A DNA stretch of 64,000 nucleotides from Candidatus Coatesiibacteriota bacterium (GCA_030602715.1 JAUVZD010000007.1:1-64000); one strand, 5' to 3'; counted from the stretch's first letter, positions 15,109-48,876 are shown. The notes: generated from the sequence alone by a model not told the origin. A program made the numbers and translations.

Positions 15109-15795
15109 TTGCCCGACGCAAGTCCACCCCATGAAGAAGAAACCCTCCAAAAACGCAGAGAACTGGTAGAGGAGACCTACAACCGATTCCCCGAAGTCAA
15201 ACTTCCTAAACTCTCTCAGAACCTGAAGTCCCTGGTTGAGTTTTACAACCAGCAGGTCAAAGACAGGAAACTCACCGTCTCTTTGGGCTACTCCCTGCTC
15301 TCCCAAGACCTGATGTATATGAGCAAGCGGGCATCGGTCGATGGTCGCCGCCGCCTTGCCCGACTCCTCTTTGAGGAGAACCGCAAGATGCTCAAAAGAG
15401 CCCTCTCCGCCGAGCTTTCAGAGCGACCGTCACTCTCCCGGTGGCTTCGCCTGCTCCACCTGCGCTGGCACGGTATGGTCTCCGGCTACGGAACCCGCCC
15501 GGGAAGGCTCATTCTGACTATGTTTTTGGTGGTCTATTGGTGGGGCTTCTTCTTTATCGCAGCCAACTACCTGTCAATAGTGGGCAATTCCATGCTGGTG
15601 CTGGACACCAGCTATGCCTTCTCCATGTTCTCCTATCTATATTTCTCCCTGACCAACTTTCTCCCCCTCTCCGGCTCCACTCAAGTGGTGCCCCTGACCT
15701 TTGGTGGGCAGATGCTGGTGGTAACTGAGGCGGTCCTAGGCTACATCCTCACCGCCTATCTGATGGAGCTGATAGTGAGGCGGAGTAAATTCTAA
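15109..15795 (+). CDS. Two-TM ion-channel-like membrane protein without a K+ selectivity filter
   Basis: A 228-residue protein. Residues 1-130 are soluble and helical. Two membrane segments follow (about 134-157 and 199-223). Between them YFSLTNFLPLSGSTQVVPLTFGGQMLVV (173-206, abbreviated here by its landmarks YFSLT, VPLT, VVTEAVLG) mirrors the pore helix, filter and second helix of the two-TM channel family, but the TVGYG filter is replaced by FLPLSGS. The start is TTG with AAAGGAGAAACA upstream. It may be a channel with altered selectivity or a non-conducting relative. It precedes the cyclic-diphosphoglycerate gene set, which has its own promoter. Confidence 0.65.
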   Translation: MPDASPPHEEETLQKRRELVEETYNRFPEVKLPKLSQNLKSLVEFYNQQVKDRKLTVSLGYSLLSQDLMYMSKRASVDGRRRLARLLFEENRKMLKRALSAELSERPSLSRWLRLLHLRWHGMVSGYGTRPGRLILTMFLVVYWWGFFFIAANYLSIVGNSMLVLDTSYAFSMFSYLYFSLTNFLPLSGSTQVVPLTFGGQMLVVTEAVLGYILTAYLMELIVRRSKF

Positions 15796-15822: not shown

Positions 15823-15851
15823 TTGACAAAATACGGAATTAGTAGTAAAAT
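15823..15851 (+). promoter_or_regulatory. Sigma-70 promoter, apparently leaderless
   Basis: TTGACA, 17-base spacer, TAAAAT ending at 15851. The usual start point, six or seven bases on, coincides with the ATG at 15858. No ribosome site precedes that ATG, so the message may be leaderless. Confidence 0.75.
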
Positions 15852-15857
15852 AAACCC

Positions 15858-17048
15858 ATGACCAAGGAGAAAAAAAACTCCCACCCGGTAACCGACACCA
15901 CTCTAGTTAAGGGCAAGCTGGAGAGCTTTCCCTACTCCAAGGGCATACTCTCCCAATCGCTACTCTCCGCCGGATTGACCCTTGACCAAGCCTATCAGGT
16001 AGCGCAGGAGATTGAGGACCAGTTCTACAATCGCAAAAGGAAGGAGATAACCTCCTCTGAGTTGCGAAAGCTCACTGCGAAGGTGGTGGCTAAGCGCTTC
16101 GGTGAGGAGCTTTCCCAGTCCTACATCTCTATATCCAGCGGCCCACGCACCATGCAGGTGCTCTACGAGGATTCCTCCCTGCCCTTCTCCAAAGGCATCC
16201 TCTCACAATCCCTGATGGCTGCCGGTCTCTCCCCGGAAGCCGCCTTTGCCGTCTCCGCCCGCATCCAGCGGAACCTGGACCGGGACAAAACCCGCACCAT
16301 CACCCACGACGAACTGCGCGGTCGGGTGAGCAAGGTATTGGAAGATGAGTTCGGGCGCACCTACGCCCGCAACTATCTACTCTGGCGGAAGATGCGGGAG
16401 CCGGACAAACCACTCATCATCCTCATCGGCGGTGGCTCCGGCGTGGGCAAGACCTCCATCTCCAGAGAGCTATCCCACCGCACCGGGGTGGGGCGCCTGG
16501 TCTCCACGGATATCATTCGGCAGATAATGCGCATGATGTTCTCCCTAGAGCTTATGCCCTCGGTTCACATCTCCAGCTACGAGGCTTTCAAGACCCAGCC
16601 GCAAAGCGGAATGTTTGACAATCCGGTCATCAGCGGTTTTCTGGAGCAGTCCCGGCTGGTCCTGGTGGGCGTCAAAGCGCTGATTGAGAGAGCCATCAAA
16701 GAAAATATCTCCATGATAATTGACGGGGTGCATAACATTCCCGGACTAATAGACCCCCGCCAGATACAGGGCGCTTATCCGGTCTTCTTCGTCCTTTCTA
16801 CCGAGTGTATGGAGGCGCATCGCTCTCGCTTCATCAGTCGTGCCGAGGAATCCAACCGCTCAGCCAGCCGCTATCTAAAATATTTCAAAAACATCCGCAC
16901 CATCCAGGACTATATCATTGAACAGGCGGAAAAATTTGACATCCCTATGATAGACAACCACAGCCTGGATAAATCCATCATCCAAACTTTGCGCCTGGTC
17001 ACAGACAAGGTAGCCCAATTTGTGGACATTCCCCAATTCTCAGAATAA
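15858..17048 (+). CDS. 2-phosphoglycerate kinase with two ATP-cone-like domains
   Basis: A 396-residue protein. Residues about 25-88 and 109-172 are two related domains, each beginning SKGILSQSL, of the ATP-cone type found at the front of archaeal 2-phosphoglycerate kinases. The kinase domain carries a P-loop GGGSGVGKTS (191-200), STDIIRQIMR (216-225) and IIDGVHNIPG (287-296). The archaeal enzyme makes 2,3-bisphosphoglycerate from 2-phosphoglycerate and ATP. The next gene would cyclise this product and the one after supplies the substrate, so function is well backed by context. The doubled cone suggests allosteric nucleotide sensing. Confidence 0.85.
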   Translation: MTKEKKNSHPVTDTTLVKGKLESFPYSKGILSQSLLSAGLTLDQAYQVAQEIEDQFYNRKRKEITSSELRKLTAKVVAKRFGEELSQSYISISSGPRTMQVLYEDSSLPFSKGILSQSLMAAGLSPEAAFAVSARIQRNLDRDKTRTITHDELRGRVSKVLEDEFGRTYARNYLLWRKMREPDKPLIILIGGGSGVGKTSISRELSHRTGVGRLVSTDIIRQIMRMMFSLELMPSVHISSYEAFKTQPQSGMFDNPVISGFLEQSRLVLVGVKALIERAIKENISMIIDGVHNIPGLIDPRQIQGAYPVFFVLSTECMEAHRSRFISRAEESNRSASRYLKYFKNIRTIQDYIIEQAEKFDIPMIDNHSLDKSIIQTLRLVTDKVAQFVDIPQFSE

Positions 17049-17057
17049 TTCTGCAAA

Positions 17058-18437
17058 ATGATCAAACTCCAGCTCCCCCCCAACTTAAGAACGCTGATCC
17101 TCGTAGATGGAAGCTACCGGCCGGATACCATCAGGGGGGCTCTGGAGAGCCTGACCGTAGATGAGCAGTATCTCATAAGCGGGTTGGTCTATCTAGGGGA
17201 AGGCGACCTCATTCCCCAGCCGGGGGAGGAACCCTGGGGCAATCTCACCCTCTATCCCCAAGAAGGGGAGTCTCTGATAGAGGTCCTGGAGCGGGGGCTT
17301 ACCACTTTCAACCCGCAGATAGTTGTGGATTTGACCAGCAGGCCAAAAATAGATTGGCGCAGTCGCATGATGCTTGCCTCACGAGCTCTCTTTCTCGGTT
17401 TTCCCTTCGTCGGTTCAGACTTTGCCTTATATCCCCCGCAACTTGAGCAAATCTCCCAGAAGCCGTCCCTTTCCATTATCGCCCTGGGCAAACGAGCGGG
17501 GAAGACCGCCCTCACCGCTCATACCGCTCGCCTTCTCAAGGAGGAGGGCATAAATCCCGTAGTCATCACCATGAGCCGGGGAGGACCCTCCTTTCCGGAG
17601 ATATTTTTCGGCGCCGAGGAGATGCTCACCCCACATATGTTACTGCAGATAGCCGAAAGCGGGCGCCATGCCTGCGCCGACTACCTGGAGAACGCCTTAT
17701 TTTCACAGGTAACTACTATCGGCTGTCGGCGAGCCGGCGAGGGAATCTGCGGCGTCCCCTTCAAATCCATCGTCGTTGACGGGGCTCTACAGGCAAACGA
17801 CCTTCCTGCAGACATCCTCATCTTTGAGGGAAGCGGTATCTCCATCCCACCGATAAAATGCGACCGCACCATCCTGATTTTGCCGGCAACTTTGCCCTTA
17901 AGGGAGTTGGAAGACATCTGCGGGCTGTATCATCTCTGGTCGGCGGATATGGTCTTCATAACCCACCTTCAAAGCGCCAGGCCAAAAAACCTGCGCACTC
18001 TGATCAACTTCATCCGTAAATTGCTGGGCGAAATCCATATAATGAAACTGGAGCTGGAACCGCATCCTTTTGGAGATATAAAAAGTAAACCCATCTTCTT
18101 AGCCTCCACCGCTCCCCAAGAGGTGCTTTCCAGCCATAAAAACCTGCTGAAGGAAAAATATAAGTGTAAAATTGTCGCCACCTCATCCCACCTTTCCGAC
18201 CAAGAGGCTCTAATCAAAGACATTGAAGAGGCGCTGGGTTTGCCCCATCCCCCCCAGGTCTTGCTCACCGAGCTGAAGGCTCATGCGGTGGATACCGCCA
18301 CCCGCATATTCTTGGAAGCCGACCGGGAGGTGGTATATCTGGACAACAGACCCCGCCAGGCGGCAAAGGTTGACCGACTGCCCAAAACTCTTTTGGAGAT
18401 TGCAAAGCAAGCCATAGACTCATTTTCGGGGAGGTAG
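17058..18437 (+). CDS. Cyclic 2,3-diphosphoglycerate synthetase
   Basis: A 459-residue protein resembling the Methanothermus cyclic 2,3-diphosphoglycerate synthetase. It starts with a Rossmann-like half (RTLILVDGSYRPDTIRGAL) and has a central P-loop ALGKRAGKTALTAHTARLL beginning near residue 142, followed by VVITMSRGGP and a metal/nucleotide region FEGSGISIPP. The known enzyme uses ATP to close 2,3-bisphosphoglycerate into the cyclic pyrophosphate. It sits nine bases after the kinase and one base before the mutase gene, a tight operon. Outside methanogens this gene is seldom discussed, which makes the bacterial context notable. Assignment is from motifs and neighbours, not alignment. Confidence 0.82.
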   Translation: MIKLQLPPNLRTLILVDGSYRPDTIRGALESLTVDEQYLISGLVYLGEGDLIPQPGEEPWGNLTLYPQEGESLIEVLERGLTTFNPQIVVDLTSRPKIDWRSRMMLASRALFLGFPFVGSDFALYPPQLEQISQKPSLSIIALGKRAGKTALTAHTARLLKEEGINPVVITMSRGGPSFPEIFFGAEEMLTPHMLLQIAESGRHACADYLENALFSQVTTIGCRRAGEGICGVPFKSIVVDGALQANDLPADILIFEGSGISIPPIKCDRTILILPATLPLRELEDICGLYHLWSADMVFITHLQSARPKNLRTLINFIRKLLGEIHIMKLELEPHPFGDIKSKPIFLASTAPQEVLSSHKNLLKEKYKCKIVATSSHLSDQEALIKDIEEALGLPHPPQVLLTELKAHAVDTATRIFLEADREVVYLDNRPRQAAKVDRLPKTLLEIAKQAIDSFSGR

Positions 18438-18438
18438 A

Positions 18439-19689
18439 TTGCCCAACGACTGTAAGGCGATATTCCTGATTCTGGACGGTCTGGGGGACCGTTCCTGCGA
18501 CCAGTTGGGAGGACGCACCCCCCTGGAGAGCGCCTCCACCCCAACCTTAGACCGGCTTGCCGCCCAGGGCATTACCGGCCTGCTGGACCCTCTAGCACCA
18601 GGCATTCGGGTGAGCACTGATGTCGGCTGTTTAGCCCTCTTCGGTTACAACCCCCTGAAGACCTACTGGGGGCGGGGACCTATTGAAGCCGCCGGCGTGG
18701 ACTTGAAACTCAAGAGGGGAGATGTCGCCTTGAGGGCGAACTTCTCCACCATAAACGAGGAGGGGATAATCGTTGACCGCCGGGCGGGGCGCATACGAGA
18801 GGGGACCGAGGAGCTGGCAAAGGCTCTGGATGGACTAAAGCTGGGTAAGGGGGTGAAGAGCAAGTTTCGGGCCGGGACCGAGCACCGAGGGGTGTTGGTG
18901 CTCTGTGGCGACAATCTCTCGGCGGAGATAAGCGACTCCGACCCGGGAGTAAACCGTGAGGGAGAACCCATCCACGAGGTCAAGCCCAAGGAGGGGACCG
19001 ATAGCGCCAAGAATACCGCCAAAAGACTGAACAAGTTCCTGAAACAGGCTTCTGAAATACTCGCCGACCACCCGGTCAACCTGCGAAGGATGGAGCAGGA
19101 CTTACCCCCAGCCAATGCGGTCATCACCAGAGGAGCGGGGATGGGCTTGCAGATTCCCTCGGTCACCGACCGCTTTAATATCAACGCCGCCTGCGTAGCC
19201 TGCGAGACGACAGTATTGGGTGTAGCCAAACTGGCTGGTTTCGCCACTTTCACCGGTGCTGGTATGACCGCCAACCTGGATACCGACCTGAAGGTCAAGG
19301 CTAAACTTATCCTGAAGGCGCTTGAGGACTACCAACTGGTCATCTGCCACATCAAAGGAACCGATATCGCGGGTCACGACGGCGACGCCCGCAAAAAGGC
19401 TGACTTTATCGGGCGGATAGACGATATGCTGGAGGAATTACTGGAAAACTACGACTGTGAGAAGACCTACATCGCCGTCTCCGCCGACCATTCAACCCCC
19501 TGTAGAATCCGAGAGCACACCGCCGACCCGGTGCCCACCCTCATCTGGGGCTACGACATTCTACCCGACAAAGTAACCGCCTTCCACGAAAGAGCCTGCT
19601 ACCAGGGCGGACTGAGCCGTATCACCGCCAACGGCTTGCTTTTGACCATAATGGATTATCTGGGAGCGACCTACCGCTTCGGCTCTTAG
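18439..19689 (+). CDS. apgM: Archaeal-type cofactor-independent phosphoglycerate mutase
   Basis: A 416-residue alkaline-phosphatase-superfamily enzyme that interconverts 3- and 2-phosphoglycerate. Landmarks are LILDGLGDR (10-18), STDVGCLALFGYNP (59-72), GRGPIEAAG (78-86), HIKGTDIAGHDGD and SADHSTPC near the end. In the usual family motif (GSDTAHLSLLGY) the nucleophile is Ser; here Thr60 aligns with it and Cys replaces the His. The start is TTG, with GGGGAGG overlapping the end of the previous gene. It probably supplies 2-phosphoglycerate to the kinase in this operon, besides any glycolytic role. Confidence 0.88.
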   Translation: MPNDCKAIFLILDGLGDRSCDQLGGRTPLESASTPTLDRLAAQGITGLLDPLAPGIRVSTDVGCLALFGYNPLKTYWGRGPIEAAGVDLKLKRGDVALRANFSTINEEGIIVDRRAGRIREGTEELAKALDGLKLGKGVKSKFRAGTEHRGVLVLCGDNLSAEISDSDPGVNREGEPIHEVKPKEGTDSAKNTAKRLNKFLKQASEILADHPVNLRRMEQDLPPANAVITRGAGMGLQIPSVTDRFNINAACVACETTVLGVAKLAGFATFTGAGMTANLDTDLKVKAKLILKALEDYQLVICHIKGTDIAGHDGDARKKADFIGRIDDMLEELLENYDCEKTYIAVSADHSTPCRIREHTADPVPTLIWGYDILPDKVTAFHERACYQGGLSRITANGLLLTIMDYLGATYRFGS

Positions 19690-19711: not shown

Positions 19712-19740
19712 TTGACAGTTTATGTTTTTAAATCTACAAT
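19712..19740 (+). promoter_or_regulatory. Sigma-70 promoter for CBS/pspA genes
   Basis: TTGACA, 17-base spacer, TACAAT, placed between apgM and the CBS gene. Predicted start is near 19747. Confidence 0.75.
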
Positions 19741-19776: not shown

Positions 19777-20292
19777 ATGCGCTCATCCAAGACAGCTATT
19801 GCAAATAAAAAGGGCAAAGATATAACCGTCAGCCGGGTGATGAACACCTCGCCCATCACCATCCGACCCAAGACGCCCATAAACAGGTTGTTGGAGATAC
19901 TCCGTGCCAAAGCGGTTACCTCCATCCCCGTGGTGGATGATGAGGGCATGCTGGTGGGAGTGGTCACCGAGAAGGATGTGGTGGTAGCCATAAGCCAGGC
20001 TAAGGACGGCGAAATGAGCGTCCACCAGCAGGTCGCTGACTTAATAAGCCCCCCTATCTCCCTGGATGAAAAGGAGGCGCTCAGCCGCCGCTTCAACCTG
20101 GTGGAGGAGGTGATGACCACCGATGTGGTCGTCGTCACCCCGCATGACACCATCTCCAAAGCGGTCAATCTGATGGCTGGGAATCAATATCACCTGCTCC
20201 CGGTGGTGGCGGATAAAACCAACCCCCCTCTGGAGCAAAAACTCATCGGCACCATTGAGAGCCTGGACATTTTAAAAGCGCTGTTGGGCTGA
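19777..20292 (+). CDS. Two-CBS-domain protein
   Basis: A 171-residue protein made only of a CBS pair: repeat 1 VSRVMNTSPITIRPKTPI...SIPVVDDEGMLVGVVTEKDV (about 18-75) and repeat 2 VEEVMTTDVVVVTPHDTI...LLPVVAD...IGTIESLDIL (about 108-168). CBS pairs bind adenine nucleotides and act as energy sensors. No effector domain is fused, so it probably regulates another protein by contact. It lies 66 bases before the PspA gene, suggesting a shared stress transcript. No good ribosome site precedes the ATG. Confidence 0.88.
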   Translation: MRSSKTAIANKKGKDITVSRVMNTSPITIRPKTPINRLLEILRAKAVTSIPVVDDEGMLVGVVTEKDVVVAISQAKDGEMSVHQQVADLISPPISLDEKEALSRRFNLVEEVMTTDVVVVTPHDTISKAVNLMAGNQYHLLPVVADKTNPPLEQKLIGTIESLDILKALLG

Positions 20293-20358: not shown

Positions 20359-21093
20359 GTGGGAATCATTGAACGGATAAAGACCATCATTCGGGCAAAC
20401 ATAAATGACCTGATAAGCAAGGCTGAGGACCCGGAGAAAATCCTCAATCAGCTCATCCTGGATATGCGAGAGAGCTATGACGAGGCAAAACAGCAGGTTA
20501 AGGTAGCCATCGCCGACGAGAAGATACTTACCAACAAACACGAAGAAGTAACCGAGAAGGTGGAACATTACAAGTCTGGAGCTGAGAAAGCCCTGAAGAA
20601 GGGCGACGAGGAGCTGGCGCGCAAAGCCCTTGCCCGCAAGATAGAGGTAGGGAAGTTGGCGGAGGAATACCGCTTGCAGCTGGATAAACAGCGCCAGGCG
20701 GTAGAGATTCTGAAGTCGGGGCTTATCGCGCTTGACAACAAGATAGACGAGGCAAAGCGCAAGAAGGACCTGCTCATCGCCCGTGCTGCTCGGGCTGAGG
20801 CGGCAAAGACCATAAGCGAGACCCTGGAACAGATCACCGTGGACAGCGGTCCCTTTGAAGCCTTTGAGCGGATGTCAGATAAGGTGGAGGCTATTGAAGC
20901 CAGCGCTGAAGCATCAACGGAGATAGCCGCCCTGGAGGCGAAGAGGGTCTCCCTGGACGAGGAGCTGGAGGCTCTGGGGGATGTGGATGTGGAGGACGAA
21001 TTATTGGTTCTGAAGGCGGAGATGGGTCTGGAGAAGCCCAAGGAGCTTCCGCCCGAGGAGAAGACCGAGGAGCTACCACCCTCATCCGAATAA
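20359..21093 (+). CDS. pspA: PspA/IM30 family membrane-stress protein
   Basis: A 244-residue, nearly all-helical protein with the PspA opening (IIERIKTIIRANINDLISKAEDPEKILNQ in outline: amphipathic helix, then AEDPEK) and long coiled-coil helices to about residue 180, then an acidic Pro/Glu-rich tail. PspA/IM30 proteins form ESCRT-III-like oligomers on the inner membrane and protect it during stress. The start is GTG with GGAGGTG upstream. The CBS protein upstream and the coiled-coil membrane protein downstream may be partners. No pspF-type regulator is present. Confidence 0.9.
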   Translation: MGIIERIKTIIRANINDLISKAEDPEKILNQLILDMRESYDEAKQQVKVAIADEKILTNKHEEVTEKVEHYKSGAEKALKKGDEELARKALARKIEVGKLAEEYRLQLDKQRQAVEILKSGLIALDNKIDEAKRKKDLLIARAARAEAAKTISETLEQITVDSGPFEAFERMSDKVEAIEASAEASTEIAALEAKRVSLDEELEALGDVDVEDELLVLKAEMGLEKPKELPPEEKTEELPPSSE

Positions 21094-21112
21094 ACGAGTT
21101 TCATCAACAACA

Positions 21113-21150
21113 CCCCCGGGGGAAGTGGACTATTACCCCGGGGGGATTTT
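21113..21150 (+). terminator. Terminator after pspA
   Basis: Nine-pair GC stem CCCCCGGGG/CCCCGGGGG around a 14-base loop, followed by ATTTTC. The T run is short. Confidence 0.65.
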
Positions 21151-21209
21151 CAAGTCGGTTTTCAGGTTTAGAATCGTCCCATTTGACCACCAATCCGGGG
21201 GAATTGGAT

Positions 21210-21842
21210 ATGTTCTTTTTATATCTCTTCCACGCTCTCATCAAACCAGGCAACATCTTTCTCTATCTTTTCATCTCGCTGGTGGCTCTGATCTTCAGCT
21301 TCTTTTCACCCGCCGGCTTGTTCATCTTCCTGGGGGGAAGCGCGGTATATGCAGCACTGGTGGGGGTAACCATCGCCAACCGGGATTTCCGTCTGAAGAT
21401 CGCCCACCGGGAACGCCTGCGCAAGATAAGCTACGGCTGGCGCAAGAAGGCTCGGCTGATAATTGAAAAGATCAGCAAGATAGATGAACTGACCAAACGG
21501 GCCGACCCCTCGGTGCGCGGCAGACTTACCGAGGCGCACATGTATCTGGAACGGATGCAGGAGCAGGCGATCAACCTCATAGAGACCATCAGCAAGGTGG
21601 AGGAGGCACAGAAGCTGACCCCCTCCGAAAAACAGGTTCAAATGAAGGAGACCAAATCCCGCCTCACCCAGCAGATATATAAACTGGAGAGTGGCTTGGA
21701 TGATGTCACCAGCAACATCATAGGCGTCCTGAGCGCCGATGCTATGGACTCCTCCGCCCAACTGGCATCCATCAACAAAGACATCAAAGCCCTATCCGAG
21801 GGCATCTCCGCCGCCAGGGAGGAGCTCGCGGCGCTGGAGTAG
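21210..21842 (+). CDS. Two-TM coiled-coil membrane protein
   Basis: A 210-residue protein of unknown family. Two hydrophobic segments at about 1-30 and 33-55 (IFLYLFISLVALIFSFF, GLFIFLGGSAVYAALVGV) are followed by a basic stretch (RERLRKISYGWRKKAR) and a long coiled coil to the end. ATG 21210 is preferred because GGGGGAATT precedes it; a TTG at 21183 would add nine residues. Placed after pspA, it may be a membrane anchor or partner for it, but that is only inferred. Confidence 0.7.
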   Translation: MFFLYLFHALIKPGNIFLYLFISLVALIFSFFSPAGLFIFLGGSAVYAALVGVTIANRDFRLKIAHRERLRKISYGWRKKARLIIEKISKIDELTKRADPSVRGRLTEAHMYLERMQEQAINLIETISKVEEAQKLTPSEKQVQMKETKSRLTQQIYKLESGLDDVTSNIIGVLSADAMDSSAQLASINKDIKALSEGISAAREELAALE

Positions 21843-21930
21843 AAACTGATATAGATAGGCATAAAGCAAAAAAGTTAGTAAAAAACCCAAATAAGATATT
21901 TGCAAACCACAAAAATGGAGGTTGTGTAAT

Positions 21931-23778
21931 ATGTTTAACGCACAATTACGAGATAACCTTAAAGATTTCTTTGGATCAAAATTACTTAGAGTGCCAGAGT
22001 ATCAAAGACCATATGCATGGGAGAAGAAAAATTGGGAAGATGCTTATAATGACATTAAGGATGTTACAGAAGGAGGAAACGGAGATATAGACCATTATTG
22101 GGGTACAATAACGCTTTACAAAACTAAAGAAAGAAAAGAAGAAGTAGGAAGAAAATTTACAGTCTATGAGATCATTGATGGGCAACAGCGAATTGTAACG
22201 ATTATTCTATTTTTACTGGCGATTTCAAAAATTATTAAAAGTAAAAAGACACAAAAAACTATTATTAATAGTTACATCAAACGAGGTGACAAATACCGGG
22301 TTGAGCTTGGATTAAAGGAAGATGACGATTTTTTTGATAAACTTATAAGTGGTCAAAGATGTAGAGCAACCAGGTTAAGTCAAAAAATGCTCAGAGGAGC
22401 ATTAAACCATTTTTCAAATAAACTAAGAGATTGCAAACAAAAAGAAATTGAAAAAATCTATTATAGTTTAGTTGATTCTAATATATTAGAGTTTGTTGTT
22501 CATGACAGGGTGATGTCTGTTAGGTCATTTCAGTTATTAAATGACCGTGGTAAGGATATCACTTTGATAGACAAAGTAAAAAGCACACTTTTGTATTATG
22601 TTGTCAAGTGCCTTGATAACAACGAGGATAACAACGAAGCAGAAAAATTACTTGACATCATAAATGGTGAATTTGGGGATGTTTTTAATGGATATAGCAA
22701 AATAGTAACTGTTGGGCAGAGAAGACATATAAAATACCTTGAGCAACTATCTGAGGATGACTTCTTGAGGTTGTTTTATCATTATTTTGGTTACTATGCA
22801 TTCAAAAAATACGACGTTTGGACACAGGATGAAAATGAAGATTGGGTCGAATATGATTTTGACATTTCTGCAAAAGCTGTGATAGATTCTTTTACCAAAC
22901 CAGCTTGCGAAGACCTAAAAAACCCAGAAGAAAAGCAACAACTACATGATTTTGTACTAGATTTTTCAAATATCTTTGCTGAGTGGTCTCGTTATTTTGC
23001 AAAAATGGTTAATAAAGCTAATATGAGAAAGAAAAATTATAAACTCACAAAACTTTTACGGTTTCAACAACTATCCGCAGAAACATACCCAGTAATAATA
23101 AATCTAAATTCCAAGGAAATATTAAACTATGAGATTTTGCATCTTATTGAGGTATTAGATTTCCGCGTATATAAGGTAAATCGTGGGGACCCAATAGCAG
23201 ATTTATACAGAAATTTCGTATCAAAAATAATTCTTGATAATGCTGAGAATGAATTGACGAAAAATGGACAGTTTTTGAAGGACTATATTAGTCATAAAGG
23301 GAATGATGATGATGTTGATTGGTATCTTAACCAAAAAGTATATGGCAAACCATGGGTAAGATATGTTTTATGGGAATTTAACAAAAAGTTTAATAAAAAA
23401 TTTAAAGACCTAGACGCAAAAAAATATTTTGACACAAAAAAAATACAGATAGAACATATATTCCCTAGAGGATTGTTTAATGATGTTCCAGAAAATGAAA
23501 TAAAAAAAATACTTAAGAAATATGGATTTAAAGGTTATAGCGATTACAAAGAAAGTATAAACTGTTTAGGAAACCTAGTTCTCTTTGAGTATAACCCAAA
23601 AACAAGCAATAAACACCCACAGGAAAAAGTAAAATATTACAAAAAATCAAAATTCCCTGCCGCAAAAGCGTTGGCAAAAGAGATAGAGAAAAGCGGGTTT
23701 AACAAAAAGAAGTTAGTGGAACGGACTGAAAAAATTGCAAAATTCTGCTTAAAGCGCTGGTCTATTGAACCAAAATAA
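21931..23778 (+). CDS. DUF262/DUF1524 nuclease (GmrSD-like restriction factor)
   Basis: A 615-residue protein. The N-terminal DUF262 domain has VPEYQRPYAW (21-30) and IIDGQQR (81-87), the nucleotide-binding/hydrolysis signature of GmrS-like proteins. Near 506-560 lies a DUF1524 HNH-type nuclease site: IEHIFP, then NCLGNLVL and NPKTSNKHP. Proteins with both halves are known as modification-dependent (type IV) or related phage-defence nucleases. GGAGG nine bases before ATG 21931 sets the start. The gene is much richer in A+T and in AAA/ATA/TTA codons than its neighbours, and no methylase or partner is adjacent. I infer horizontal gain of a single-gene defence system. Confidence 0.88.
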   Translation: MFNAQLRDNLKDFFGSKLLRVPEYQRPYAWEKKNWEDAYNDIKDVTEGGNGDIDHYWGTITLYKTKERKEEVGRKFTVYEIIDGQQRIVTIILFLLAISKIIKSKKTQKTIINSYIKRGDKYRVELGLKEDDDFFDKLISGQRCRATRLSQKMLRGALNHFSNKLRDCKQKEIEKIYYSLVDSNILEFVVHDRVMSVRSFQLLNDRGKDITLIDKVKSTLLYYVVKCLDNNEDNNEAEKLLDIINGEFGDVFNGYSKIVTVGQRRHIKYLEQLSEDDFLRLFYHYFGYYAFKKYDVWTQDENEDWVEYDFDISAKAVIDSFTKPACEDLKNPEEKQQLHDFVLDFSNIFAEWSRYFAKMVNKANMRKKNYKLTKLLRFQQLSAETYPVIINLNSKEILNYEILHLIEVLDFRVYKVNRGDPIADLYRNFVSKIILDNAENELTKNGQFLKDYISHKGNDDDVDWYLNQKVYGKPWVRYVLWEFNKKFNKKFKDLDAKKYFDTKKIQIEHIFPRGLFNDVPENEIKKILKKYGFKGYSDYKESINCLGNLVLFEYNPKTSNKHPQEKVKYYKKSKFPAAKALAKEIEKSGFNKKKLVERTEKIAKFCLKRWSIEPK

Positions 23779-46158: not shown

Positions 46159-48876
46159 ATGATGAAAAGTTATCTGGCGACAATTATTCTAGTTTTGTTC
46201 GCCGCCTCCTCTGCCTGGTCGGTAACCTTTGACCAAGCCACGGATATAGTCATCTCCGAGGTCTGTCTGGGCAACCTGGAGGATACCCGCCTTTCTACAA
46301 TTGAAGGGATTCAGGAGCAAGGCACTATCATAAGTTCTTTCTCAGACGAAGTTATGGTGCCCTTCAACTCCTATCTCTTCATCGTGGACCGGATGCCTGA
46401 CGCCAACTGGGAGCACCCCTGCCAGTGGGTCTTTGTGGATGTAGCAAGCGGGGAGTTTGCGGTATTTGATATGTTGTCCCCACCCGGAATACTGTTGATG
46501 ACAATCATCCACGAACCGCTGGATTTATCAAGTATCGGCGAATATTCCTACGAGAAGATCATTGAGCGCATCCGTGAGGAGCAGATCAAGATATTCGGGG
46601 CGGAAAGCTATGACTTTGACCACAGTCAGCTCAAAGGACAGCGCTACGCCCTGCTCATTGACGGCGGATACGCCCTTTCCAGCAACTACATCCGCTACTG
46701 GGACGATATCGCCTTCATCTACCGAGCCCTGGTCAACTACTACGGCTACGACGAGGACAACGAGATAACCGTCTGCATGTCCGACGGGGACAACCCCGCT
46801 AATGACCGCAACCGCTGGCCCTATTCCGGCTACGACAGCTCACCTACCGACCTGGACGACGACGGAGACCAGGACTATTCCCTGGACGCCACCCGCTCAA
46901 CCATCCTCAGCCAACTACAATGGTTGGTTGACAACACCACCGCAGACGACCAGGTCTTCATCTTCACCACCGACCACGGGGCAAGCGACGGTAGTCTCTG
47001 CCTGTGGAATCAACAGTCCCTCTACCCCAATGAATTTGCCGACTATGTTGAAGATATGCCCGCCGAGGTGGTTATCTGCACCTTTGAACAATGTTATTCC
47101 GGAGCCTTCCCCGACGCCCTGGCTGACGTTGAGGGCTGTATCAGTTGTTCGGCGGTGGATGCTTACCACTCCTCATACGCCATGGGTCCCGAATATCTCT
47201 TTGATACCTTCGTCTTCCATTGGACCTGTGCGGTGAACTGGGCGGAACCCGATTTTGAGGGCTACGACAGCGACCCCATTGACGCCGACGAAGACGACTC
47301 CGGCGAGGTGGAGATGGACGAAGCTTTTGACTATGCCGACTTACACGACACCGACGACTTTGGCTCTCAGTATCAGGACCCCTCCGAAATAGGCGATGTG
47401 ACCACCCTCTGGGGTAACACCACCGGCATAAATATCTCCATCACCGACTGGCAGCTCACCGAGACCTCCGGCGACGGCGACGGAATTATTGAACCCGGGG
47501 AGAGCTACGACCTCACTCCCTATCTGTATAACGGTGGGTCGGCGACCGCCACCGGGGTTGACCTGATTCTGAGCAGTGACAGCTCCGATTTAGACATAGA
47601 TACCGCCACCACTACCTGCCCGGATATCCCCCCGGATACCACCCAGCATCCATCCGTCCCCCTGGCTTTCACCATCCACGGGGATGTGGACCACAACATA
47701 CACATTGACTTCAACCTCAATGTCAACACCGACGAGGGCTATGACAAAGACTTCGCCTATCAGATAGGCGTAGTAACCGACTACGGTTTCCGTGACTTCG
47801 TGGAGAGCGGTGAGGGCTACTGGGAACATGAGGGCGACCACGACCAGTGGCATATCTCCGACACCGCATACTACAGCCCCACTCATTGCTGGCGGTGCGG
47901 GGATACCGAAGGAACAGGCTACGACAACAATATGGACGCCCACCTCTACAGTCCGTTAATCTTCGTAACCGACGACCCAAAAGAGACCCCCTACCTCTCC
48001 TTCTGGCACCAGTGGGGTATGTATTCAAGTTCCGACGAGTGCTATCTGTTGATTGATGACGGCAGTGGCTTTGTGGAGCTGGACAACTTCACCGGCGACA
48101 GCGGCTCCAACTGGGAAGAGGAGACCTACGACTTGACCGCATACACCGACACTCTGGTTCAGCTGGATTTCAACATGGTAACCAACGCTTCGGGGAACGA
48201 CGAACTGGGCTGGAATGTGGACAACATCATCGTGACCCCCAATCCGTATGTCGGTATAAACGTCTATAACTTCATCACCCTCTGCGAGGACGGGAAAGTC
48301 ATCGTCACCTGGCAGTCTCTTGAGGACGTGGGGATAATCGGCTTCAACCTCTATCGCCGAGAGGCAAGCGATACCCTCAACCAGAAAACCAATCTCACCG
48401 CTTCTCCTGAGGGAATGAACAGCCCGGCAAGTATAATCAACGACTGGCAGAAGCTGAACCAGTCCTTGATTACCGGCACAAATCCCTATCACTTCGTAGA
48501 TGAGGATGTAATCCTGGACGTTACCTACCAATACCGTCTGGAAGCGGTCTATGGCGACCACAGCCAGAATGAAGCCGGCTCCACCATCACCGTTCAGGAC
48601 CAGACCCAGCCCTTCAGTTATCATCTGGCGCAGAGTTATCCCAACCCCACCACTGGACACCTGACCATAGAATACGCCATTCCGGAGAGCGGTGCGGTCT
48701 CCCTCAAGGTCTATAACCTGAGCGGTCAGTTGATAGACATTCTGGTTGATGAGCACCAACTGCCCGGCATCTACTCGGTAAAATGGAACGCCCGGGACCT
48801 GGCAAGCGGAGTTTATATCTACACCCTCTCCGCCGGCAATTTCCTCAGCTCCAAGAGACTGGTCTTAAGCAAGTAG
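46159..48876 (+). CDS. Secreted caspase-fold cysteine peptidase (C13-like) with type A sorting domain
   Basis: A 905-residue protein. Signal peptide at 1-20. The peptidase domain (about 160-380) has GQRYALLIDGG, then TTDHG with His273 and FEQCYSG with Cys312, the dyad arrangement of clan CD peptidases such as legumain. Asp-rich segments (DLDDDGDQDYSLD, DADEDDSGEVEMD) look like calcium sites. Next come a CARDB-like region (ITDWQLTETSGDGDGIIEPGESYDL) and Ig-like domains, and finally a type A sorting domain from AQSYPNPTTG (about 825) to LVLSK. I infer export by a type IX-like system as a surface or released protease. It has its own promoter, long leader and strong terminator. Confidence 0.87.
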   Translation: MMKSYLATIILVLFAASSAWSVTFDQATDIVISEVCLGNLEDTRLSTIEGIQEQGTIISSFSDEVMVPFNSYLFIVDRMPDANWEHPCQWVFVDVASGEFAVFDMLSPPGILLMTIIHEPLDLSSIGEYSYEKIIERIREEQIKIFGAESYDFDHSQLKGQRYALLIDGGYALSSNYIRYWDDIAFIYRALVNYYGYDEDNEITVCMSDGDNPANDRNRWPYSGYDSSPTDLDDDGDQDYSLDATRSTILSQLQWLVDNTTADDQVFIFTTDHGASDGSLCLWNQQSLYPNEFADYVEDMPAEVVICTFEQCYSGAFPDALADVEGCISCSAVDAYHSSYAMGPEYLFDTFVFHWTCAVNWAEPDFEGYDSDPIDADEDDSGEVEMDEAFDYADLHDTDDFGSQYQDPSEIGDVTTLWGNTTGINISITDWQLTETSGDGDGIIEPGESYDLTPYLYNGGSATATGVDLILSSDSSDLDIDTATTTCPDIPPDTTQHPSVPLAFTIHGDVDHNIHIDFNLNVNTDEGYDKDFAYQIGVVTDYGFRDFVESGEGYWEHEGDHDQWHISDTAYYSPTHCWRCGDTEGTGYDNNMDAHLYSPLIFVTDDPKETPYLSFWHQWGMYSSSDECYLLIDDGSGFVELDNFTGDSGSNWEEETYDLTAYTDTLVQLDFNMVTNASGNDELGWNVDNIIVTPNPYVGINVYNFITLCEDGKVIVTWQSLEDVGIIGFNLYRREASDTLNQKTNLTASPEGMNSPASIINDWQKLNQSLITGTNPYHFVDEDVILDVTYQYRLEAVYGDHSQNEAGSTITVQDQTQPFSYHLAQSYPNPTTGHLTIEYAIPESGAVSLKVYNLSGQLIDILVDEHQLPGIYSVKWNARDLASGVYIYTLSAGNFLSSKRLVLSK

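What the first reader, a model, noticed from the sequence alone, without database searches (positions are those of the whole stretch)
15823..19689. Bacterial operon for cyclic 2,3-diphosphoglycerate
Three adjacent genes encode an archaeal-type phosphoglycerate mutase (makes 2-phosphoglycerate), a 2-phosphoglycerate kinase with doubled ATP-cone domains (makes 2,3-bisphosphoglycerate) and a cyclic 2,3-diphosphoglycerate synthetase. Seen directly: P-loops, cone repeats, alkaline-phosphatase motifs, gaps of nine and one bases, one promoter. Known: the compound is a thermoprotectant and phosphate store of hyperthermophilic methanogens. Inference: this bacterium makes it, using all steps from 3-phosphoglycerate in one transcript; the kinase may be feedback-controlled through its cones.
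Basis: partly seen in the sequence, partly recalled or inferred. Interest (0 to 1): 0.9.

Follow-up and report, generated by a model that had tools for sequence, protein, structure and literature searches.

The report
Bacterial cyclic-diphosphoglycerate operon, unusual variant
A bacterium carries, side by side, the genes that in heat-loving methane-producing archaea make cyclic 2,3-diphosphoglycerate (a protein protectant and phosphate store); related gene sets occur in several other bacterial phyla, so the compound may be far more widespread than the literature says, though this copy of the last enzyme is oddly altered and needs a test.

Summary
[quoted passage not shown] Kinase and mutase pass curated NCBI cut-offs; the synthetase matches the solved Methanothermus fervidus enzyme (E 1e-78; predicted model TM 0.92).

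Three things change the reading. (1) It is not a lone transfer from methanogens: cDPGS genes occur in at least eight bacterial phyla and many archaea, and the same operon is in Poribacteria and Omnitrophota. (2) The module is larger: a stand-alone CBS-pair gene follows it in 4 of 4 complete operons and in seven loci of another gene order, where a metallophosphoesterase comes next. The operon apgM is a second copy, from a clade with Thr instead of Ser at the expected nucleophile; every Thr copy found is in a cDPGS genome. (3) This synthetase is an outlier: catalytic residues are kept, but N-domain residues conserved in essentially all 82 relatives, including substrate contacts, are changed.

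Most likely the operon makes cDPG, but the product is unproven. The genome has no reverse gyrase and no 2,3-BPG-dependent mutase. New variant of a known kind.

The parts
15823..15851 (+). sigma-70-like promoter TTGACA-N17-TAAAAT; the expected transcription start falls on or next to the ATG at 15858, suggesting a leaderless transcript (inference)
   Evidence: 11 of 12 consensus; region not enriched over shuffles
15858..17048 (+). 2-phosphoglycerate kinase, 396 aa: two N-terminal ATP-cone domains and a P-loop kinase domain (adenylate-kinase-like fold)
17058..18437 (+). cyclic 2,3-diphosphoglycerate synthetase homologue, 459 aa; catalytic K145/R146/K149/T150/D208/K406 kept, N-domain E14,H15,E45,K46,E95 and C-domain S207,E305 changed (M. 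fervidus numbering)
18439..19689 (+). archaeal-type cofactor-independent phosphoglycerate mutase (apgM), TTG start, Thr at the expected nucleophile position (STDVG instead of GSDxA)
19777..20292 (+). stand-alone CBS-pair protein, 171 aa; syntenic in all complete 2PGK-cDPGS-apgM operons found; has its own promoter-like site at 19712-19740 (inferred adenine-nucleotide sensor)

Best explanation
This is a bacterial cyclic 2,3-diphosphoglycerate (cDPG) operon. apgM turns 3-phosphoglycerate into 2-phosphoglycerate, the ATP-cone kinase phosphorylates that to 2,3-bisphosphoglycerate, and the P-loop synthetase uses a second ATP to close the phosphoanhydride ring, giving cDPG as a phosphate/energy store or stress solute. 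The ATP cones on the kinase and the adjacent CBS-pair protein would tie synthesis to the adenylate state. Shown here: family membership of the three proteins, conserved gene order across phyla, a dedicated second apgM, intact catalytic residues of the synthetase core. Inferred: enzymatic activities, direction, product, regulation and physiological role.
For: 2PGK and apgM pass curated cut-offs. cDPGS matches 8ork/8oru over full length, and its AF2 model (pLDDT 92.3) superposes on substrate-bound 8oru with TM 0.92. Residues named in the M. fervidus mechanism (K145, R146, K149, T150, D208, K406; PMC10690619) are kept. The same order 2PGK-cDPGS-apgM-CBS occurs in G037, Poribacteria and Omnitrophota, whose cDPGS copies are canonical. 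All Thr-type apgM found are in cDPGS-bearing genomes. The genome has a separate Ser-type apgM and no dPGM.
Against: The window synthetase keeps only 11 of 23 N-domain columns conserved in 95% or more of relatives, against 46 of 59 in the C-domain (Fisher p 0.015). It has E45D and K46L in the substrate-contacting loop of the partner subunit, and E305Q at an ADP contact. It sits on a long branch. No activity or metabolite data exist. No growth-temperature evidence points to thermoprotection (no reverse gyrase above cut-off).
Confidence: 0.6

Rival explanations
1. The synthetase of this lineage has changed substrate: the conserved P-loop half still activates a phosphate with ATP, but the altered N-domain lobe holds a 2,3-BPG derivative or another bisphosphate, so the product is a related but different compound.
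For: E14S, H15Y, E45D, K46L, E95R, S207A and E305Q are all changed at positions that are identical, or nearly so (79-82 of 82), in the compared relatives; N-domain loss exceeds C-domain loss; divergent cDPGS-like proteins that lack K145/R146 exist in the same class, so the fold does drift.
Against: All catalytic basic residues and metal ligands are intact; the kinase next door is a canonical 2PGK agreeing at 38 of 42 conserved columns; predicted fold is the same throughout; E45D is conservative.
Confidence: 0.2
2. The Thr-type apgM is not the supplying mutase but the cDPG (or 2,3-BPG) hydrolase that returns the store to glycolysis. (Compatible with the main reading of the other two genes.)
For: The genome already has a Ser-type apgM; the Thr copies are a single clade (100/95) seen only in cDPGS genomes; other cDPG loci carry unrelated phosphoesterases in the comparable slot: calcineurin-like after CBS in 7 of 7 loci, PHP in three haloarchaea. 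A cDPG hydrolase activity is described in M. thermautotrophicus without a gene named there (PMC1224877).
Against: The protein passes two phosphoglycerate mutase cut-offs; Thr in place of Ser at a nucleophile position does not by itself imply hydrolysis (phosphopentomutase of the same superfamily uses Thr; from general knowledge).
Confidence: 0.2
3. The kinase serves to make 2,3-bisphosphoglycerate as cofactor for a cofactor-dependent phosphoglycerate mutase.
For: The 2PGK product is that cofactor (general knowledge).
Against: No dPGM at any significance in the genome; two cofactor-independent apgM copies present.
Confidence: 0.02
4. The window synthetase is a decaying, inactive copy of an inherited operon.
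For: Long branch and loss of many conserved residues.
Against: Full-length open frame, tight operon spacing, catalytic residues all retained while others changed, confident complete fold.
Confidence: 0.08

Closest known systems
Methanothermus fervidus cDPG pathway (2PGK + cDPGS; PDB 8ork/8oru, PMC10690619)
   Same: Synthetase homologous over full length with the same catalytic residues; predicted fold TM 0.92 to the substrate-bound enzyme; kinase passes the 2PGK equivalog cut-off
   Different: Bacterial host without reverse gyrase; genes in one operon with apgM and CBS; synthetase N-domain residues E14, H15, E45, K46, E95 changed; kinase has two cones
2PGK-cDPGS-apgM-CBS operons of Candidatus Poribacteria (L041), genome G037 (L191) and Omnitrophota (L021/L194)
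   Same: Same gene order, same Thr-type apgM clade, CBS gene next
   Different: Their synthetases keep the canonical residues (23/24 and 58-59/59 conserved columns for Poribacteria and G037); the Omnitrophota kinase has one (weak) cone match
cDPGS-2PGK pairs of Actinomycetota (Aquicultor, Thermoleophilia) and cDPGS-2PGK-CBS-metallophosphoesterase loci of Thermoplasmata, Theionarchaea, Mcinerneyibacterium, Cloacimonadota
   Same: Same two synthetic enzymes adjacent; CBS gene in the latter group
   Different: Reverse gene order; no adjacent apgM of the Thr type; followed by transaldolase and Rho, or by a calcineurin-like phosphoesterase
cDPG genes predicted in Pyrococcus yayanosii (PMC4890121) and Nitrosocaldus (PMC5797428)
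   Same: Genomic predictions of cDPG synthesis outside methanogens
   Different: Archaea; no bacterial operon reported in the papers found

Membership tests
2-phosphoglycerate kinase (2PGK, NF003259) | Score above curated equivalog cut-off | tested here: met
   354 vs 343 bits
2-phosphoglycerate kinase (2PGK, NF003259) | P-loop and family-conserved columns | tested here: met
   38 of 42 columns conserved in 90% of 41 homologues; the mismatches are conservative
2-phosphoglycerate kinase (2PGK, NF003259) | ATP-dependent phosphorylation of 2-PG | not testable with these tools
   needs purified enzyme
[quoted passage not shown]
   phmmer 1.2e-78 over residues 12-457; TM 0.92 to 8oru
[quoted passage not shown]
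   all identical (roles from PMC10690619)
[quoted passage not shown]
   D, L and Q in the window; E45 and K46 are 82/82 and E305 79/82 in relatives. So filed as a cDPGS homologue, not as a proven cDPG synthetase
[quoted passage not shown]
   needs assay
apgM phosphoglycerate mutase (TIGR00306 / NF003104) | Score above cut-offs | tested here: met
   412 vs 320 and 495 vs 489 bits
apgM phosphoglycerate mutase (TIGR00306 / NF003104) | Ser at the superfamily nucleophile position | tested here: not met
   Thr in the window and six relatives, Ser in the other copies read and in the three solved structures; position assigned by alignment
CBS-pair protein (PF00571) | Two CBS domains | tested here: met
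   97.6 bits, 2 stretches

The most novel reading that the evidence does not exclude
cDPG metabolism is a widespread, adenylate-regulated phosphate/energy-storage module of non-hyperthermophilic bacteria and archaea, made of a synthesis pair, a CBS-pair nucleotide sensor and a lineage-specific phosphoesterase (calcineurin-like, PHP, or the Thr-type apgM) that is the missing cDPG hydrolase; the window holds a version whose synthetase has shifted in substrate contacts.
Probability: 0.25. Interest if true: 0.8.

Novelty: new variant of a known kind. Interest (0 to 1): 0.6.

Why it matters
A 2023 paper states that cDPG is found exclusively in hyperthermophilic methanogens. Conserved operons in several bacterial phyla make that claim directly testable, and suggest that cDPG is a general phosphate/energy store rather than only a heat adaptation. 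The gene neighbourhoods also name candidates for the regulator (CBS pair) and for the cDPG hydrolase, for which the literature found here names an activity but no gene. Non-thermophilic enzymes would also interest people trying to produce cDPG as a protectant.

Tried and rejected
Cofactor supply for dPGM: rejected, no dPGM in the genome. iPGM as the housekeeping mutase: no match above cut-off; a second apgM on contig C10 fills that role. Recent transfer from Methanobacteria: not supported by the trees, though the window rows are long branches in two of them. Hyperthermophily of the host: no reverse gyrase over cut-off, only partial matches. Pfam and NCBIfam have no model for the synthetase. 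Class relatives' cDPGS-like proteins (L004-L009) were considered as orthologues: they lack K145/R146 and their genomes have no 2PGK. Reading the original cDPGS cloning paper failed (not held).

Full report
What is there. Three intact genes lie head to tail on the plus strand at 15858-17048, 17058-18437 and 18439-19689. The first encodes a 396-aa 2-phosphoglycerate kinase with two ATP cones and a P-loop kinase domain (Pfam; NCBIfam 354 bits against a cut-off of 343; AF2 model pLDDT 87.8, nearest solved folds adenylate-kinase-like). The second encodes a 459-aa protein without any Pfam or NCBIfam model, which matches the solved cDPG synthetase of Methanothermus fervidus over its full length (E 1.2e-78). 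Its AF2 model (pLDDT 92.3) fits substrate-bound 8oru with TM 0.92. The third is an archaeal-type phosphoglycerate mutase (495 bits against 489; 412 against 320). A TTGACA-17-TAAAAT site ends seven bases before the kinase ATG, which suggests a leaderless transcript, but the region is not enriched in such sites over shuffles. The finding's coordinates and gaps are right; its listed gene order is not.

How widespread. By record title they come from Actinomycetota (Aquicultor, Rubrobacter, Thermoleophilia), Bacillota, Omnitrophota, Poribacteria, Coatesbacteria, Cloacimonadota, Fidelibacterota and Mcinerneyibacteria, and from archaea including Methanobrevibacter, haloarchaea, Thermoplasmata and Theionarchaea. 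The literature search found no report of the bacterial operon, and a 2023 paper calls the compound exclusive to hyperthermophilic methanogens (PMC10690619). Gene predictions in Pyrococcus and Nitrosocaldus are published. The sample is the set most similar to the window, so counts are lower bounds and not frequencies.

The module. The order 2PGK-cDPGS-apgM also occurs in Poribacteria (L041), genome G037 (L002/L191) and Omnitrophota (L021). In all four a stand-alone CBS gene comes next (two domains in three of them, one found in the contig-end copy of G037); in the window it is 19777-20292. It is the only short, stand-alone CBS protein among the CBS matches of the genome. A profile of these proteins found CBS pairs also directly after cDPGS-2PGK in seven further loci (Thermoplasmata, Theionarchaea, Mcinerneyibacterium, Cloacimonadota). 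Ten of eleven hits outside the window fall in that slot, against about 9% expected by length (p about 5e-10 on a simple binomial; the loci are related and three built the profile, so this overstates the case). In those seven loci the next gene starts like a calcineurin-type phosphoesterase, confirmed by Pfam for the two tested. Haloarchaea have a PHP-domain gene there (Pfam for one), and Actinomycetota a transaldolase followed by Rho.

The mutase. The genome has two apgM copies, no iPGM above cut-off and no dPGM. The copy outside the operon has the usual Ser motif (GSDTAHL); the operon copy has Thr (STDVGCL). The three solved apgM chains have Ser. Thr copies form one clade (support 100/95) found in the window, G037, G047, Omnitrophota, Poribacteria, a Coatesbacteria genome and one Desulfurococcales archaeon, all of which carry cDPGS. 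In a set of 145 genomes not chosen for cDPGS, four have a full-length cDPGS and three of these hold the only Thr-type copies seen (hypergeometric p 8e-6, or 3e-4 without the window genome). Only the best-scoring 30 copies were read, so a distant Thr copy could have been missed. That this residue is the nucleophile is inferred from the superfamily alignment.

The synthetase is odd. Against 82 relatives, the window copy keeps every residue named as catalytic in the proposed mechanism of the M. fervidus enzyme (K145, R146, K149, T150, D208, K406). It has lost E14, H15, E45, K46 and E95 of the N-domain and S207 and E305 of the C-domain, all at or near invariance elsewhere. It keeps 11 of 23 conserved N-domain columns and 46 of 59 in the C-domain; the next lowest full relative keeps 21 of 23 (Fisher p 0.015). 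In the crystal structure E45 and K46 reach over from the partner subunit to the substrate. The protein sits on a long branch, and no closer relative than 38-39% identity was found. Class relatives have only more divergent proteins without K145/R146 and no 2PGK.

Best reading. The operon most likely makes cDPG from 3-phosphoglycerate by apgM, 2PGK and cDPGS, with cones and CBS as adenylate sensors. Homology, gene order and residues are shown; activity, product, regulation and role are inferred. The altered N-domain leaves room for a related product (about 0.2). The Thr-type apgM could instead be the hydrolase that empties the store (about 0.2), since other cDPG loci carry phosphoesterases in a comparable place; a hydrolase activity, without a gene, is described for M. 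thermautotrophicus (PMC1224877). The host has no reverse gyrase above cut-off, so thermoprotection at very high temperature is unlikely and a storage role is favoured, as an inference.

Verdict. New variant of a known kind; interest 0.6, held down because the pathway is known, homologues are common in genomes, and no function is shown.

Noticed in passing
window 21922-23778: GmrSD-type (type IV) restriction gene in a 34% GC stretch within a ~53% GC window, probably a recent import.
   Followed up: no
L004-L007, L009 (class relatives), L008 (same order): Divergent cDPGS-like proteins (24-28% identity) without the K145/R146 pair and without Pfam match (L004, L005 tested); L008 has also lost the P-loop. 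In L004 next to a radical SAM and an amidohydrolase gene. Function unknown.
   Followed up: partly
L042, L043, L049, L071, L078, L034, L080: cDPGS-2PGK-CBS followed by a calcineurin-like phosphoesterase gene: candidate cDPG hydrolase.
   Followed up: partly
L056, L074, L075: Haloarchaeal cDPGS-2PGK pairs followed by a PHP-domain gene (Pfam tested for L056), another phosphoesterase candidate.
   Followed up: partly
L012, L013, L016, L045, L055, L091: Actinomycetota cDPGS-2PGK followed by transaldolase/FSA and Rho; Rubrobacter-type cDPGS followed by GlpX fructose-bisphosphatase (L091).
   Followed up: partly
window 15109-15795: Membrane protein resembling a degenerate ion channel just upstream of the operon promoter; no Pfam hit and not found near other cDPG loci.
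   Followed up: partly
window 20359-21842: PspA/IM30 gene and an unassigned membrane coiled-coil gene follow the CBS gene.
   Followed up: no
window 46159-48876: C13 peptidase with a Por secretion-system C-terminal sorting domain.
   Followed up: no
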